Source of the DNA: a virus
Virus record (IMG/VR): IMGVR_UViG_3300046794_000244
Span: 1-30,937 of that record
Length of the DNA: 30,937 nt
Direction: 5' to 3' (one strand)
The notes under the pieces were generated by a model. It worked only from the letters and a program-made list of their open reading frames with translations, searched no databases and was not told the DNA's origin. Below are positions 13,781-22,168 of this stretch, one piece after another. Position 1 is the first letter of the stretch. Each line of letters opens with the position of its first letter. Made by a program: the position numbers and the translations under genes.

Positions 13781-14284
13781 ATGATTCCTCAAACTTTGTT
13801 TAACACGAACCTGTTCGTTGACGGCGTGAACTTCTCCGGCGACGTGCCGAGCCTGACCCTGCCCAAGCTGACCAGCAAGACCGACGAGTATCGCGGTGGT
13901 GGCATGGCCGGTGCCATCGAAATGGATCAGGGTCTGGAAAAAATGGAGGCGTCCTTTGTCACCAAGGGTGTGCGCCGTGAGTCGTTGAAGTACTTCGGTC
14001 TGGCCGATGGCACGGCCTTCAATGCGACGTTCCGTGGCGCCTTCAAGGGGCAAAAGGGCGCAGTGACGGCCGTTGTCGCCACCCTGCGCGGCCGGCTCAA
14101 AGAGGTCGACCTGGGCGACTGGAAAGCCGGTGATCCGGCTGAGATCAAACACGCCATTGCAGTCACGTACTACAAGCTCGAAATCGACGGGCGCCTGATG
14201 TACGAAATCGACATGGTCGCCGGGATTCAGGTGATCGACGGCAAAGACCAGCTCGCCGAAGTGCGCACCGCGCTCGGCATGTAA
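13781..14284 (+). CDS. Tail tube protein (gpFII, major tail tube)
   Basis: A 167-residue P2 gpFII-type tube subunit. Diagnostic segments are NLFVDGVNFSGDVPSLTLPKL at the N-terminus, YRGGGMAGAIEMDQGLEKMEASF (about 38-60) and HAIAVTYYKLEIDGRLMYEIDMVAGI near the end. Length matches P2 (172). It follows the sheath gene with an AAGGGG ribosome site about 10 bases upstream, and precedes the chaperone gene as in P2. Confidence 0.95.
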   Translation: MIPQTLFNTNLFVDGVNFSGDVPSLTLPKLTSKTDEYRGGGMAGAIEMDQGLEKMEASFVTKGVRRESLKYFGLADGTAFNATFRGAFKGQKGAVTAVVATLRGRLKEVDLGDWKAGDPAEIKHAIAVTYYKLEIDGRLMYEIDMVAGIQVIDGKDQLAEVRTALGM

Positions 14285-14298
14285 GGGAATAGATCCAG

Positions 14299-14898
14299 AT
14301 GACTCAAGTAAACGATAAGAAGCTGCCGGTCTGGCTGGCGGTCACCGCTGAGAGCGCCGTCGTGACCCTCTCGCGTCCCAGCGATGCCAACGGGGTTAAG
14401 GTCGAGACGTTGACCTTGCGGGCCCCGGCCGTGCGCGAAGTGCGGGCGGCCGACCGTGCCTCTAACGGTGATGACGAGCAGCGCGAGCTGATATTGTTCG
14501 CGGGCTTGGCCGAGGTGGGCTTGAAGGATCTGGAAGGCCTCAAGCTGGTGGACTATCGCCGTGTACAGGCGGCCTATTCGCGCCTGGCACCCGATACCGA
14601 TTACTCGACGTCGATGCCGTCGTGGTTGTCGGTCACCACCGATAACGTGCTGGTCACGCTGTCGTGCCCGAGCGAAATCAACGGCGTCACGGTCGATAAG
14701 TTGGCCTTGCGTTCCCCGACCGTGCGCGACGTGCGTTCGGCGAATCGTGAGGCGGGCGGCGATGACGAGCAGCGCGAGCTGGTGTTGTTTGCCGAGTTGG
14801 CCGGTGCGCCTGTCGCGGATCTGGAGGGCCTAAAGCTGGTGGATTTCAACCGCCTACAGGCCGGCTATTTTCGTATGGACCAAGACAACGGGGTTTGA
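14299..14898 (+). CDS. Tail assembly chaperone gpE with internal tandem duplication
   Basis: This gene lies where P2 encodes E, the chaperone that loads the tape measure during tail assembly. Usual gpE-type proteins are about 90-100 residues; this one has 199 because it carries two copies of the domain. Copy 1 spans about residues 9-97 and copy 2 about 106-194; both share the blocks WL-VT, VTLS-PS, NGV-V, VR-VR-A-R, GDDEQREL and DLEGLKLVD. The copies have diverged, so the duplication is not very recent. The gene ends in GGGGTTTGA, just where a downstream frame for the gpE' extension begins. Confidence 0.85.
   Translation: MTQVNDKKLPVWLAVTAESAVVTLSRPSDANGVKVETLTLRAPAVREVRAADRASNGDDEQRELILFAGLAEVGLKDLEGLKLVDYRRVQAAYSRLAPDTDYSTSMPSWLSVTTDNVLVTLSCPSEINGVTVDKLALRSPTVRDVRSANREAGGDDEQRELVLFAELAGAPVADLEGLKLVDFNRLQAGYFRMDQDNGV
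14890..14898 (+). other. Candidate programmed frameshift site between gpE and gpE'
   Basis: The chaperone frame reads GGG GTT TGA. The gpE' frame is displaced by +1 (equivalently -2). A tRNA on GGG at 14890-14892 could re-pair perfectly on GGG at 14891-14893 and then read TTT GAC and on into gpE'. Many tail chaperone genes make such an extended product (P2 by -1, Mu by -2); a +1 or -2 event here is inference. Confidence 0.5.
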
Positions 14899-15010
14899 CC
14901 CCAGCGTCATAAAAATGGCCGCGAAACGTCTGGCGGCGGAAACCGGATTTTCCGCCGCTGAGATTCAGTCGATGCCGTTTGCTGAGATGGTGTGGTGGCT
15001 CACGGATTGA
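14894..15010 (+). CDS. GpE' family extension (frameshift product part)
   Basis: From 14894 the frame reads FDPSVIKMAAKRLAAETG and ends at TGA 15008-15010 with the segment SAAEIQSMPFAEMVWWLTD, the typical short GpE (PF06528) signature of a two-helix domain with a Met-X-X-X-E-hydrophobic-Trp pattern. In P2-like phages this piece is made only as the tail of a frameshifted gpE-gpE' fusion. An independent ATG exists at 14915, giving 31 residues, but no convincing ribosome site precedes it. The tape measure gene follows 38 bases later, as expected. Confidence 0.75.
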   Translation, partial: FDPSVIKMAAKRLAAETGFSAAEIQSMPFAEMVWWLTD

Positions 15011-15048: not shown

Positions 15049-17922
15049 ATGGCGAACAAGATCGCCCTCGGGCTGGTCATCGGCGGCGCCGTCAGTTCGA
15101 CGGTCGGTGCCGCGTTCAAGGATGTAACGGGGCGGATCAAGCGCCTCGAGGCAGAAGGCAACAAGGCGCGTGTGCTGCAGCGCACGATTGGCGACACCAT
15201 TCGCCTGCGCGATGAATGGAAAAAGGCCCACGACAGCGGCGCCGCCGGAGCCTCCAAGTTATTGAGTCGGCTGAACTCCAATCTGGACAGCTTGAAAAAG
15301 CAGGGCGTCGAAGTCGGGCGTCTGGAGAAGTCCTATCGGGCCATGGGGCAGGCGGCCAATAAAGCCGAGCTGAAGGCCAAGGGGCATCAACAGCTGGATG
15401 CCGGAAAGTCCGGCATGAAAAAAGCGGTCGGTGCCGCTGTTGTCGGTGTGGGCTCTATGGCGGTGCCGACCAAGGTCAGCGCGGACTTTGGCGCCATTGT
15501 GCGAGACATCGCGATCAAGGCCGGAATTGCCAACAAGCCGCAAGAACAGGAGATGTCGCGCAAGATCATTGATACCTCGCGTGACACCGGTATGGCGCGC
15601 AACGACGTGGCCGACGTGGTCAACCAGTTGGTTGGCGCCGGTATGGAGTTGAGTAAGGCCCTGGAATATGCGCCGGCCGCGGCCAAGTTTGTCGTGGGGC
15701 AGGGGTCGAACGGTGTCGACACGGCGAAGATGATCAACGCGCTGGGGCAAAACGCCAAGATCACCGACCCCAAGCAGATGCAGCAAGCGCTGGAGGCGAT
15801 TGCCTATCAAGGGCAGGCGGGCAGCTTTGAAGCGGCCGACATGGCTAAGTGGTTCCCTGAGCTGTTGGCCAACATGGGCAGCCTGGGCATTACCGGCATG
15901 GATGCGGTGACGCAGTTGGGCGCCATGCTGCAAGTGCAGATGAAGTCTGCCGGCGGCGCCGATGAGGCGGCCAACAACCTCAAAAACTGGATGGGCAAAA
16001 TCGGCTCCGGCGACACCGTCAAGGCGTATGAAAAGGCAGGCATCGACTACAAGGGTTCGATGCAGACCGGTTTGCAAAACGGAATGTCCACGCTGGAAAC
16101 CAGCATGGCGTTGGCGCAGAAGTACATTCAAGCCACCGATCCGAAGCGCGCGGCGGCGATGGCCAAAGCGACATCCGAAATCAGCCAGCAAGCCGACCCG
16201 GAGAAAGCCAAGGCCATGATGGCCTCTCTGGAAGAGTCGCTGCGCACTGGCGACCTGTTCGCTGACATGCAGGTCAAGGCCGCGCTGTCGGCGTTCATGC
16301 AGAACAAGGCGCTGTACAGCCAGCTTAAAAACGATTCGCGCGATGCAACAGGCATCCTCGATAAAAACCTCAGCGAGCGGCGTGAGGCGTCGTCGCAGAA
16401 GTGGGCCGAAATGGCTCAGTCGATGGATGACGCCATGCGCAGCGTGGGGGACGCTCTGCGCCCGGTCACGGACACGGTGGCCGAGGCGCTGACCAAGGTC
16501 ACCAAAAGCATTACCTCAATGTCTGACAGCGCGCCCGGGGTGGTGACGGGGATCGCGTTGGTCGGTGGTGGGTTGGTCACGCTCACCGGCCTGTTCAGTT
16601 CGTTCAAGATGGGTAAAGGGCTGTTCAACCTGGCGCGCGGCTCGCTGGGTGGCGGCAAGGCCGGCGCGGTGCAAAAGGTCTTTGTCACCAACGCCGAGGA
16701 CGGCGGTGATGGCGAAGGGGCGGGGGCCAAGGGCAAGACCGGCAAAGCGCTGTCGCTGGTGGAAACCGGGCTCAAGGCGGTGGCGGCTTTCACGGGCAAG
16801 GGGGCCGAGGGCGCCGACGATGAAGCGGGCGGCAAGGACGACAAAAAGCCCGGCAAATTCGATGTGATCGCGACCGGCCTTAAAGTGGTTTCGATGGCGA
16901 AAGACGTCGCCTCGGGCGGCGACGAGGGCGGCGAGTCGGGATCGGCTGACGACGGCGTCAAGAAGGTTTTCGTGGTCAACGCGGGAGCCATGGGCGGCGG
17001 CGCTGAAGGCCCTGGGGGAACGCGCCGGCGTGGACGCGGGTCAAGGCGCAATGCTTCGCGCCGTCGGCCGTTGACTCGGCCGGGTGGTTCTTCGCGGCCG
17101 CCTATTCCGGGGGCAAGGCCGCCGGTTCCTGTGCCGCGTCCGCCGATTCCACCGGTGCCGGTACCGGCCGGTTCGATGGCCCGGCTGGGTGGAGTGGTGC
17201 AGGCGGTCGGCAAGATCGGCAAAGCCGCCAAGATGATTCCCGGCGGCTCGCTGATGGAAGCCGGCGCCATGGCGTTCGACACCTATGAAAATGCTAAGAC
17301 CAATGACGAAAAGGCCGAGGGTTACGGCGCGGCCGCCGGTTCGCTGGCAGGCACCATGGCTGGCGCGGCGGCCGGGGCGGCCATTGGTTCGGTGGTGCCG
17401 ATTATCGGGACCGCCATTGGTGGCTTGATTGGCGCCTACCTCGGCAGTCAGGGCGGCCAGATGTTGGGCGGCGGCGTGGGCAAGTCGTTGTTTGGTGGCG
17501 AAGAGGAAAAACCTACCCCACCGGCCACGCCGTTGTTGATGGCGCCGCGCCCTGGTCCGGCTATTCCCAGCTTGGCCAGCATGGGCCAATCGTTCAATGG
17601 CGCGAAGGGCTCCGGCGCGTTGCTGATGGCCTCGGGGGCACCCCCCCAAGGGCCGGCGCTAGGCGACGTCGTCCGCGCCATGGCCGTACAGGCGCCACCC
17701 AAGGCGGCAGCCGTGGCCATTCAGCCCAAGGAGCCGGAGAAGCCGGCATCGACCAAAGTGGATCAGCAGTTTCAGTACTCGCTGAACATGCCGGTCACGG
17801 TGCAAGGGGATGTCAAAGACCCGCAACGCTTGGCTCAGGACTTGATGCCGCACATGCAGCGGATGATGGCGGACGCCGCGAAACAGAACGCTACCAAGCT
17901 GTACGACGAACCCCACGTTTAA
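15049..17922 (+). CDS. Tail tape measure protein (gpT)
   Basis: A 957-residue tape measure that sets tail length and passes into the host during injection. Residues about 20-120 are coiled-coil-like (DVTGRIKRLEAEGNKARVLQ), about 140-340 match the TP901/PhageMin_Tail core (ELSKALEYAPAAAKFVVGQG, LGAMLQVQMKSAGGADEAANNLKNWMGKIGSG). Beyond about residue 490 come a hydrophobic Gly-rich stretch, a Gly/Lys/Asp linker, a Pro/Arg-rich insert (about 655-705) and a small-residue membrane-like segment (GTMAGAAAGAAIGSVVPIIG, about 767-786). A GGGGGG ribosome site lies just before ATG 15049. Confidence 0.95.
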   Translation: MANKIALGLVIGGAVSSTVGAAFKDVTGRIKRLEAEGNKARVLQRTIGDTIRLRDEWKKAHDSGAAGASKLLSRLNSNLDSLKKQGVEVGRLEKSYRAMGQAANKAELKAKGHQQLDAGKSGMKKAVGAAVVGVGSMAVPTKVSADFGAIVRDIAIKAGIANKPQEQEMSRKIIDTSRDTGMARNDVADVVNQLVGAGMELSKALEYAPAAAKFVVGQGSNGVDTAKMINALGQNAKITDPKQMQQALEAIAYQGQAGSFEAADMAKWFPELLANMGSLGITGMDAVTQLGAMLQVQMKSAGGADEAANNLKNWMGKIGSGDTVKAYEKAGIDYKGSMQTGLQNGMSTLETSMALAQKYIQATDPKRAAAMAKATSEISQQADPEKAKAMMASLEESLRTGDLFADMQVKAALSAFMQNKALYSQLKNDSRDATGILDKNLSERREASSQKWAEMAQSMDDAMRSVGDALRPVTDTVAEALTKVTKSITSMSDSAPGVVTGIALVGGGLVTLTGLFSSFKMGKGLFNLARGSLGGGKAGAVQKVFVTNAEDGGDGEGAGAKGKTGKALSLVETGLKAVAAFTGKGAEGADDEAGGKDDKKPGKFDVIATGLKVVSMAKDVASGGDEGGESGSADDGVKKVFVVNAGAMGGGAEGPGGTRRRGRGSRRNASRRRPLTRPGGSSRPPIPGARPPVPVPRPPIPPVPVPAGSMARLGGVVQAVGKIGKAAKMIPGGSLMEAGAMAFDTYENAKTNDEKAEGYGAAAGSLAGTMAGAAAGAAIGSVVPIIGTAIGGLIGAYLGSQGGQMLGGGVGKSLFGGEEEKPTPPATPLLMAPRPGPAIPSLASMGQSFNGAKGSGALLMASGAPPQGPALGDVVRAMAVQAPPKAAAVAIQPKEPEKPASTKVDQQFQYSLNMPVTVQGDVKDPQRLAQDLMPHMQRMMADAAKQNATKLYDEPHV

Positions 17923-20700: not shown

Positions 20701-21224
20701 TCCCCACGCCGTACCGGCTGTTGACCGTTGGCGTGTTGTTGACCGCATTGGTCGGCGGATCTGCCGCGTCGGCCTGGAAGGTTCAGGACTGGCGTTACGG
20801 CAACCAACTCGCCGAACAGGCCGGCCTGCACAAGGACGATCTGATCGCCATCAGCAACGCCGCCGCTGACCAGGTGCGCACCGCACAGGACAAGCGCCTG
20901 GCCCTTGAGCAGCGGCTGTCGGCCAGCGAACAAACCCACTACAAGGAACTCAGCGATGCTCAAACCAACCAGGCTCGCCTGCGTGATCGCCTTGCCACTG
21001 CTGACCTACGGCTGTCAGTCCTACTCGACGCCACCGATACAGCCAGTGGCGACACAGTGTCAGTCGCCACCCCAGCCGGCGGCGTGGTTCATGGCGGAGC
21101 ACGAGCCCAACTTGACCCAGCGCATGCTCAACGAATTATCGGCATCACCGATGCCGGCGACCAAGGACTGATCGCCCTGGCGGCCTGTCAGGCCTACGCC
21201 AAAGAAGTCTCAACAGCGAAGTGA
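20682..21224 (+). CDS. Rz: Inner membrane spanin Rz
   Basis: A 180-residue i-spanin of the phage lysis family. An N-terminal membrane segment (LLTVGVLLTALVGGSAASAW, about 13-32) anchors it in the inner membrane; the rest is a periplasmic coiled coil (DQVRTAQDKRLALEQRLSASEQTHYKELSDAQTNQARLRDRLATADLRL) followed by a Cys-containing tail. Together with Rz1 it fuses inner and outer membranes at the last step of lysis. It starts inside the lysin gene, 18 bases before its stop. The Rz1 gene is nested in its 3' half in another frame. Confidence 0.9.
   Translation: MRVVDLIPTPYRLLTVGVLLTALVGGSAASAWKVQDWRYGNQLAEQAGLHKDDLIAISNAAADQVRTAQDKRLALEQRLSASEQTHYKELSDAQTNQARLRDRLATADLRLSVLLDATDTASGDTVSVATPAGGVVHGGARAQLDPAHAQRIIGITDAGDQGLIALAACQAYAKEVSTAK
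20956..21171 (+). CDS. Rz1: Outer membrane spanin lipoprotein Rz1, nested in Rz
   Basis: A 71-residue o-spanin encoded entirely within Rz in a different frame. It begins MLKPTRLACVIALPLLTYGC, a short basic signal followed by a hydrophobic stretch and a lipobox LTYG-C, so cleavage before Cys and lipidation are expected. The mature part is Pro/Gln-rich (PPIQPVATQCQSPPQPAAW), typical of Rz1. ATG 20956 is the natural start of the signal peptide; the frame is open further left but that part is unlike a signal sequence. The Rz/Rz1 nesting is a classic phage arrangement. Confidence 0.9.
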   Translation: MLKPTRLACVIALPLLTYGCQSYSTPPIQPVATQCQSPPQPAAWFMAEHEPNLTQRMLNELSASPMPATKD

Positions 21225-21232
21225 AAAAGAGC

Positions 21233-21266
21233 GACCGGGGTGGATGCGTCAACATCCAACCCGGTC
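21233..21266 (+). other. Long imperfect hairpin between Rz and the methylase
   Basis: GACCGGG pairs with CCCGGTC, then one G-A mismatch, then TGGATG pairs with CATCCA around a 6-base loop: 13 base pairs in 14 positions. It starts 9 bases after the Rz stop. No T-run follows, so it is not a standard intrinsic terminator; it could protect an RNA end or act with Rho. Function is inference. Confidence 0.55.
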
Positions 21267-21339
21267 ACCGTCCCCGCAGATTGCCCCTGCAAGTCCAGCC
21301 AAGGCTCTTACTCCGTGCACGAAGCGCGGCGAGCCTAGC

Positions 21340-21359
21340 ACCTGTTTATCCATACAGTA
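21340..21359 (+). promoter_or_regulatory. LexA (SOS) box upstream of the methylase
   Basis: CTGTTTATCCATACAG (21342-21357) fits CTG-N10-CAG and matches 13 of 16 positions of the E. coli LexA consensus CTGTATATATATACAG. It lies 16 bases before the methylase ATG, where bound LexA would block transcription. No convincing -35 is visible. Recognition by Pseudomonas LexA, which uses a similar motif, is expected from the family. Confidence 0.65.
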
Positions 21360-21373
21360 AAGGTCTTGCTCTC

Positions 21374-22168
21374 ATGTCTTCACCCATCATTCCTTGGATG
21401 GGCGGCAAACGCCGCCTGGCCGACCGCCTCATCCCGCTCTTCCCACCACATGAATGCTACGTCGAAGTCTTTGCCGGCGGTGCCGCGCTGTACTTCATGC
21501 GACCCCAAGCCGCTCCGGTTGAAGTCCTCAACGATATCAACGGCGACCTGGTCACGCTGTACCGCGTCGTGCAGAACCACCTCGAAGAATTCGTGCGCCA
21601 GTTCAAATGGGCGCTCAGTTCGCGTCAGGTGTTCGAGTGGCAGAAGATGACCCGCCCTGAAACTCTCACCGATATCCAGCGCGCCGCCCGATTCTTTTAT
21701 CTGCAGCACCATGCCTTCGCTGGCAAGGTCACCGGGCAGACGTTCGGTACAGCAACCACCGGCCCGGCCATCAACCTGTTACGGATCGAGGAAAACCTCT
21801 CGGCCGCCTGGCAGCGTCTGTCCGGCACCTACGTCGAACACTTGCCCTGGCTCGAATGCGCGGAGCGCTACGACCGTGCTCATACCTTCCATTACATGGA
21901 CCCGCCTTACTGGCAGACCGCTGGCTATGGGGTAGAATTTCCGTTCGAGAACTATGAGCGGATGGCCGACTTCATGCGCCGCTGCAAAGGCAAGGTGATG
22001 GTCAGCATCAACGACCACCCGGACATTCGGCGTGTGTTCGAGGGCTTTCACTTTGAGACGCTCGACATCCGTTACTGCAACACCAACCAGCGGCAGGGCA
22101 AAGCTGAGGTGAGTGGCGAGCTGGTGATTATGAACTGGGAGCCTGCGGCATTGGGAGGATTGTTCTAA
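21374..22168 (+). CDS. DNA adenine methylase, D12 class (Dam-like)
   Basis: A 264-residue N6-adenine methyltransferase. Motif I-like SAM site is PWMGGKRRLADRL (about 7-19) with VEVFAGGAALYFM (30-42) and VLNDINGDLV (51-60); the catalytic motif IV is DPPYW at 176-180; the C-terminal part has the NTNQRQGKAEVSGELVIMNW region of D12 enzymes. The recognition site cannot be read from sequence. ATG 21374 fits the family start; the frame is open further left through a hairpin and a LexA box. Placed right after the lysis genes it looks like a moron that may protect phage DNA from host restriction. No partner endonuclease is adjacent. Confidence 0.9.
   Translation: MSSPIIPWMGGKRRLADRLIPLFPPHECYVEVFAGGAALYFMRPQAAPVEVLNDINGDLVTLYRVVQNHLEEFVRQFKWALSSRQVFEWQKMTRPETLTDIQRAARFFYLQHHAFAGKVTGQTFGTATTGPAINLLRIEENLSAAWQRLSGTYVEHLPWLECAERYDRAHTFHYMDPPYWQTAGYGVEFPFENYERMADFMRRCKGKVMVSINDHPDIRRVFEGFHFETLDIRYCNTNQRQGKAEVSGELVIMNWEPAALGGLF

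What the first reader, a model, noticed from the sequence alone, without database searches (positions are those of the whole stretch)
14299..14898. Tail chaperone gpE duplicated and fused in tandem
The 199-residue protein contains two diverged copies of the same domain, each with GDDEQREL and DLEGLKLVD. P2-type gpE has one copy. Multiple chaperone copies coat the tape measure, so a fused double domain may change stoichiometry or spacing. The fusion is directly visible in the sequence.
Basis: seen in the sequence. Interest (0 to 1): 0.6.

Follow-up and report, generated by a model that had tools for sequence, protein, structure and literature searches.

The report
Fused double tail-assembly chaperone, Pseudomonas prophages
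A Pseudomonas prophage carries a tail-building helper protein made of two fused copies of one domain, an arrangement kept across many prophages and apparently evolved more than once, followed by a conserved sequence that probably makes the ribosome slip forward by one base to produce a longer version.

Summary
Window 14299-14898 encodes 199 residues with two PF10109 (Phage_TAC_7) domains that are 57% identical. Both copies are under purifying selection (dN/dS about 0.12) and both are predicted to fold like known tail assembly chaperones. The gene lies between the tube and tape-measure genes of a contractile-tailed prophage.

The tandem form is not a one-off. About 100 distinct viral-contig and Pseudomonas loci carry it, and 15 of 299 sampled Pseudomonas genomes have the window type. 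On a tree of neighbouring tail genes, tandem forms make four clades interleaved with single-domain forms. A fifth, divergent class is in cultured phages VP882 and phiHAP-1, so the architecture already sits in databases, apparently unremarked.

It is reached in the +1 frame through a conserved N-TTT-RA site resembling the prfB shift site, unlike the -1 TTTTTTG of P2. Only the second copy carries it. Tandem and single forms have tape measures of overlapping length, so the fusion does not obviously set tail length.

Best reading: a covalently pre-linked chaperone dimer, also made as a frameshifted tandem-E+E' form. Function and frameshifting are inferred, not measured.

The parts
14299..14898 (+). 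Tandem tail assembly chaperone gene (tandem E), 199 aa
   Evidence: Two PF10109 domains; about 100 distinct homologous tandem genes
14362..14586 (+). N copy of the PF10109 domain
   Evidence: 70.7 bits, profile 2-77 of 79
14653..14880 (+). C copy of the PF10109 domain
   Evidence: 68 bits, profile 2-78 of 79
14890..14899 (+). Putative +1 frameshift site GGG-GTT-TGA-C: last two sense codons, stop and next base
   Evidence: TTT at 14894-14896 corresponds to the base triplet invariant in 75 of 75 distinct tandem sequences, while the base before it varies; conserved extension is in the +1 frame
14897..15010 (+). E' extension, 37 codons in the +1 frame, ending VWWLTD and stop
   Evidence: Conserved directly from the site in tandem and single forms; substitutions mostly at third positions of this frame
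14928..14964 (+). Predicted RNA hairpin inside E' (role unknown)
   Evidence: Region z-score -3.9; mean z -2.5 in tandem forms against -1.0 in single forms; third-position pairs mostly kept
13781..14284 (+). Tail tube gene (neighbour)
   Evidence: PF04985, 203 bits
15049..17922 (+). Tape measure gene, 957 aa (presumed client of the chaperone)
   Evidence: PF10145, 90 bits

Best explanation
It is the E-type tail assembly chaperone (PF10109) of a temperate contractile-tailed Pseudomonas phage, duplicated in tandem and fused in frame, so each chain is a covalent two-domain unit. Shown: two homologous domains, both conserved; each half predicted to fold as a tail assembly chaperone; position between tube and tape measure; a conserved extension frame behind the second domain only. 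Inferred from lambda gpG/gpGT and P2 E/E+E': the tandem chains coat the tape measure before tube assembly. A minority of ribosomes shift +1 at GTT-TGA, giving tandem-E plus a 37-residue E' tail that recruits tube subunits. The fusion most likely pre-pairs neighbouring chaperone protomers, so about half as many chains are needed, and E' tails are diluted relative to E domains unless frameshifting is adjusted.
For: Two PF10109 domains, 57% identical; dN/dS about 0.12 in both copies over 91 distinct genes; AlphaFold2 pLDDT 90.8, pTM 0.84; N half aligns with YqbN (Z 5.9) and C half with HK97 gp13 (Z 5.3), the next row being Z 2.3; best viral model match over the full length is a 193-aa tail assembly chaperone; gene order tube, E, E', tape measure; TTT invariant at the shift site in 75 of 75 tandem sequences and E' coding in the +1 frame; tandem conserved in about 100 distinct genes.
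Against: No experiment shows chaperone activity, binding to the tape measure, pairing, or frameshifting for this protein. The inter-domain arrangement was not compared with neighbours in crystal spirals. The fold matches are of moderate Z. Tape measures of single forms have the same length range, so single domains do the same job.
Confidence: 0.75

Rival explanations
1. The two copies have specialised: one domain mainly binds the tape measure, the other mainly supports the E' tail or a different tape-measure segment, so the protein is a heterodimer in one chain rather than a doubled unit.
For: The copies are only 57% identical and form separate branches within the window type. Only the C copy is followed by E'. 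In the L152, L241, VP882 and phiHAP-1 tandems the N copy sits on the longer branch.
Against: Core residues are invariant in both copies, both match the same family almost equally well in the window, and constraint is equal. Which copy drifts more is not consistent between types: in the window type single forms match the N half best.
Confidence: 0.3
2. The fusion is neutral: an accidental tandem duplication in which two linked domains do what two separate chains do, with no change in assembly.
For: Tape-measure lengths overlap between tandem and single forms, and single and tandem forms interleave on the neighbour-gene tree.
Against: Both copies stay under strong purifying selection and the tandem is stable across about 90 distinct window-type genes; no N-copy decay was seen in them.
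Confidence: 0.25
3. The extension is reached not by +1 slippage but by a -2 shift, or E' is started separately at an internal ATG (window 14915).
For: Phage Mu uses -2, which reaches the same frame (PMC5009743). The window has an in-frame ATG at 14915. The L152 type lacks the TTT site (GAG-GAA-TAA).
Against: The pattern of free first base and fixed TTT fits +1 re-pairing. E' conservation begins directly after the site, and relatives such as L101 lack that ATG.
Confidence: 0.12

Closest known systems
Single-domain PF10109 chaperones of related Pseudomonas prophages (e.g. P. viridiflava L104-L106)
   Same: Same family, same gene order, same NTT-TRA site and +1-frame E' ending WWLTD
   Different: One domain of about 100 aa; GAG or GAA rather than GGG before the slip codon
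Hapunavirus VP882 and phiHAP-1 tail protein (and Pseudomonas L115/L116/L151)
   Same: Also two PF10109 stretches in one chain between tube and tape measure
   Different: Very diverged, longer linker (18-24 residues), no TTT site; in the Pseudomonas members the open extension frame is -1
Phage P2 gpE / E+E'
   Same: Chaperone pair made from one start, encoded beside the tape measure of a contractile tail (PMC3091744)
   Different: Single domain of 91 aa; -1 shift at TTTTTTG (PMC3091744)
HK97 gp13 and B. subtilis YqbN (solved tail assembly chaperones)
   Same: Each half of the predicted model aligns with one of them (Z 5.3 and 5.9)
   Different: Single-domain; no detectable sequence similarity
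A0A8S5V8Z8, tail assembly chaperone of metagenomic phage ctCpR1
   Same: Predicted structure matches over the full two-domain length, TM 0.62/0.64
   Different: 16% identity; only a predicted model
prfB +1 frameshift site (CUU-UGA)
   Same: NTT-TRA with slippage onto TTT; CTT and TGA are frequent versions here
   Different: Different gene and purpose; TAA and TAG stops also occur here; no upstream Shine-Dalgarno-like stimulator was tested

Membership tests
PF10109 Phage_TAC_7 (E / 41 / 14 tail assembly chaperones) | Score above the curated cut-off | tested here: met
   134.7 bits for the whole protein; 70.7 and 68.3 for the halves; cut-off 25
PF10109 Phage_TAC_7 (E / 41 / 14 tail assembly chaperones) | Gene between tail tube and tape measure | tested here: met
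   Tube 13781-14284, tape measure 15049-17922
Tail assembly chaperones (gpG/gpGT type) | Chaperone fold | tested here: met
   Each half aligns with a solved tail assembly chaperone, Z 5.9 and 5.3; predicted model only, moderate Z
Tail assembly chaperones (gpG/gpGT type) | Long form made by recoding near the end of the first frame | tested here: inconclusive
   Conserved +1 frame and site, but no product measured
Tail assembly chaperones (gpG/gpGT type) | Binds the tape measure and is absent from the virion | not testable with these tools
   Needs biochemistry
P2-type E/E+E' | Single E domain of about 91 aa | tested here: not met
   Two domains, 199 aa
P2-type E/E+E' | -1 shift at TTTTTTG | tested here: not met
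   Site is GGGGTTTGAC and the conserved extension is in the +1 frame
prfB-type +1 frameshifting | NUU-U(stop) with slippage onto UUU | tested here: met
   Sequence pattern only: TTT in 75 of 75 tandem sequences
prfB-type +1 frameshifting | Upstream Shine-Dalgarno-like stimulator and measured shift | not tested
   GGG abuts the slip codon, but no assay or pairing test was done

The most novel reading that the evidence does not exclude
Fusion of two chaperone domains has evolved independently at least four times in related contractile-tail modules, and the recoding site changed with it: GGG before the slip codon in three of four tandem clades, against a single single-domain exception. This would be selection to rebalance E' tails per E domain when each chain carries two domains. 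It would come with a prfB-like +1 (NUU-URA) signal not previously described for tail chaperones.
Probability: 0.2. Interest if true: 0.55.

Novelty: new variant of a known kind. Interest (0 to 1): 0.33.

Why it matters
How many chaperone units coat a tape measure, and how the short-to-long ratio is set, remain hard to test in tail assembly. Natural tandem and single forms in otherwise similar tail modules, with tape measures of overlapping length, offer a ready comparison: a change in domains per chain at similar ruler length. The prfB-like +1 site would also be a different recoding design for the same task as the -1 site of P2.

Tried and rejected
Assembly artefact or chance repeat: rejected by about 100 distinct genes and by shuffles. 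Tandem form tied to a longer tape measure: not supported, since lengths overlap. Three or more copies: none found among the loci. A single origin of all tandem forms: not settled by the short domain tree (AU p 0.04 for all N copies as one clade, 0.43 for window plus L101 N copies). The neighbour-gene tree needs four changes, three forced by well-supported branches, but gains cannot be told from losses. A first tube-only tree was set aside because some sequences taken were evidently not tube proteins. Sequence search of the PDB gave no hit; plain Foldseek against the PDB gave no significant hit, the second look did. GGG against tandem state: the independent-pair test (run on the flawed tube tree) was too weak to judge. 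A class-wide survey found few PF10109 genomes and no further tandem beyond Pseudomonas. Literature searches found no description of a duplicated or fused tail assembly chaperone, but most subscription papers, including Xu et al. 2004, are not held, so this is weak evidence of absence.

Full report
Observation. The halves align over 93 residues without gaps at 57% identity (E=1e-38). The alignment score of 272 compares with a shuffle mean of 27 and a maximum of 49 in 1000. Pfam reports two PF10109 (Phage_TAC_7, 'E, or 41 or 14') stretches; each half alone passes the cut-off (70.7 and 68.3 bits against 25). The copies are 70% identical in DNA.

Context. The window is a 30.9-kb virus record with terminase, portal, head protease and major head protein, then baseplate and tail-fibre genes. 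Sheath, tube, this gene and tape measure follow. With head genes present it is a contractile-tailed phage or prophage, not a headless tailocin. The order tube, E, E', tape measure is that expected for a tail assembly chaperone.

Spread. Searches of viral contigs and Pseudomonas genomes returned many full-length tandem homologues. After removing identical copies there were 99 tandem and 85 single-domain genes with a +1-frame E'. In 299 Pseudomonas genomes, 15 carried the window-type tandem (17 copies, 73-97% identity). One carried the L101 type and one the L152 type, while 24 had only a single-domain match at E<=1e-30 (my count). No phage record gave a match long enough to be a window-type tandem. 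No gene with three copies was seen.

Origins. A tree of the neighbouring sheath, tube and tape-measure N-terminus places tandem forms in four clades: window type, L101 type, L152/L164 type, and L241. Single forms lie between them, requiring four changes, three forced by well-supported branches. On the short domain tree the two L152 copies are each other's closest relatives (93/97). One clade of all N copies is marginally rejected (AU p 0.04), but a shared N-copy clade of the window and L101 types is not (p 0.43). Recurrent duplication is therefore favoured but not proven; repeated loss from an older tandem remains possible. A fifth, much more diverged tandem class is found in other Pseudomonas prophages and in cultured phages VP882 and phiHAP-1 (two PF10109 stretches each). 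The fused architecture is thus already in databases, though I found no paper that discusses it.

Both copies are maintained. Among 91 distinct window-type genes, dN/dS is about 0.12 for the N copy and for the C copy. Core residues are invariant in both. Linker length between the detected domains is nearly constant (10 or 13 residues in most).

Structure. AlphaFold2 on 28 tandem sequences gives mean pLDDT 90.8 and pTM 0.84, with two repeats of strands followed by helices. Among solved structures, the second-look aligner ranks YqbN (3KLU, Z 5.9, residues 1-99) and HK97 gp13 (2OB9, Z 5.3, residues 113-197) first and second, above the third at 2.3. Both are described as tail assembly chaperones (PMC9603447). 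The best viral model match spans the whole protein: a 193-aa 'tail assembly chaperone' of a metagenomic phage, TM 0.62/0.64 at 16% identity. Tubular or spiral assembly is described for this fold (PMC9603447, citing Pell et al. 2013), so two linked neighbours of such a spiral is a natural reading. The arrangement was not compared with crystal neighbours here.

Frameshift. Behind the second domain lies an extension frame of 37 codons ending VWWLTD, in the +1 frame and starting directly at the stop. In 75 distinct tandem sequences the last sense codon and stop read N-TT-T(A/G)(A/G), with TTT in all. Over the 132 distinct +1 loci the first base of that codon is C, G, T or A. Substitutions in the extension fall mostly on third positions of its own frame (12193, 6989, 26251 for positions 1, 2, 3; pairwise counts, not independent). 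This fits P-site slippage from NTT onto TTT before a slow stop, as in prfB (CUU-UGA). One survey states that all CUU-stop +1 sites in the RECODE database are prfB (PMC10885494). P2 uses -1 at TTTTTTG (PMC3091744). Use of -1, -2 or +1 in different phages' tail genes is known (PMC5009743). So +1 is not new in kind; the prfB-like form in tail chaperones may be, within the limits of the papers that could be searched. The L152 type lacks the TTT site, so its mechanism is unexplained.

Stoichiometry. Tape measures of the window type (median 886 aa) and of most single forms (median 911) overlap. If the chaperone coats a fixed length of tape measure, tandem forms need about half as many chains, and each frameshift product brings one E' per two E domains. 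Three of the four tandem clades have GGG before the slip codon (96 of 99 distinct genes). Single forms mostly have GAG or GAA, with one GGG exception, L236, the sister of a tandem clade. Whether this tunes the ratio is unknown and the number of independent events is too small for a test.

Verdict. The likely mechanism is a covalently paired tail assembly chaperone with a +1-frameshifted long form. It is a new variant of a known kind, of moderate interest.

Noticed in passing
window 14928-14964: A strong predicted RNA hairpin inside E' (region z -3.9), conserved in window-type tandems and in the single forms L127 and L243, weak in the L101 and L241 types; third-position pairs are mostly kept with a few compensatory changes. 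It lies about 30 bases after the stop, which seems far for a frameshift stimulator.
   Followed up: partly
window 14890-14892: GGG codon before the slip codon in 96 of 99 distinct tandem genes against 1 of 85 single forms.
   Followed up: partly
L324 3483-4070 (VP882), L325 3450-4124 (phiHAP-1), L115/L116/L151: A second, highly diverged tandem PF10109 class in Hapunavirus and other Pseudomonas prophages, annotated in the phage records only as a conserved hypothetical or tail protein.
   Followed up: partly
L152 and L164: A tandem form with E' in the +1 frame but no TTT site (GAG-GAA-TAA-C); how the extension is reached is unclear.
   Followed up: no
L108 (OQ658366.1): An 18-kb record labelled a complete Pseudomonas phage carries a single-domain E in a tail gene cluster; its size suggests an R-pyocin-like element rather than a phage.
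   Followed up: no
L003/L261, L028/L303, L241: Unusual tape-measure lengths among tandem loci: 595 and 731 aa, and 1212 aa in L241; the short ones may be broken genes or wrong start choices.
   Followed up: no
window 21221-22168: A DNA methyltransferase gene (phrog_56) lies downstream of the tail module.
   Followed up: no
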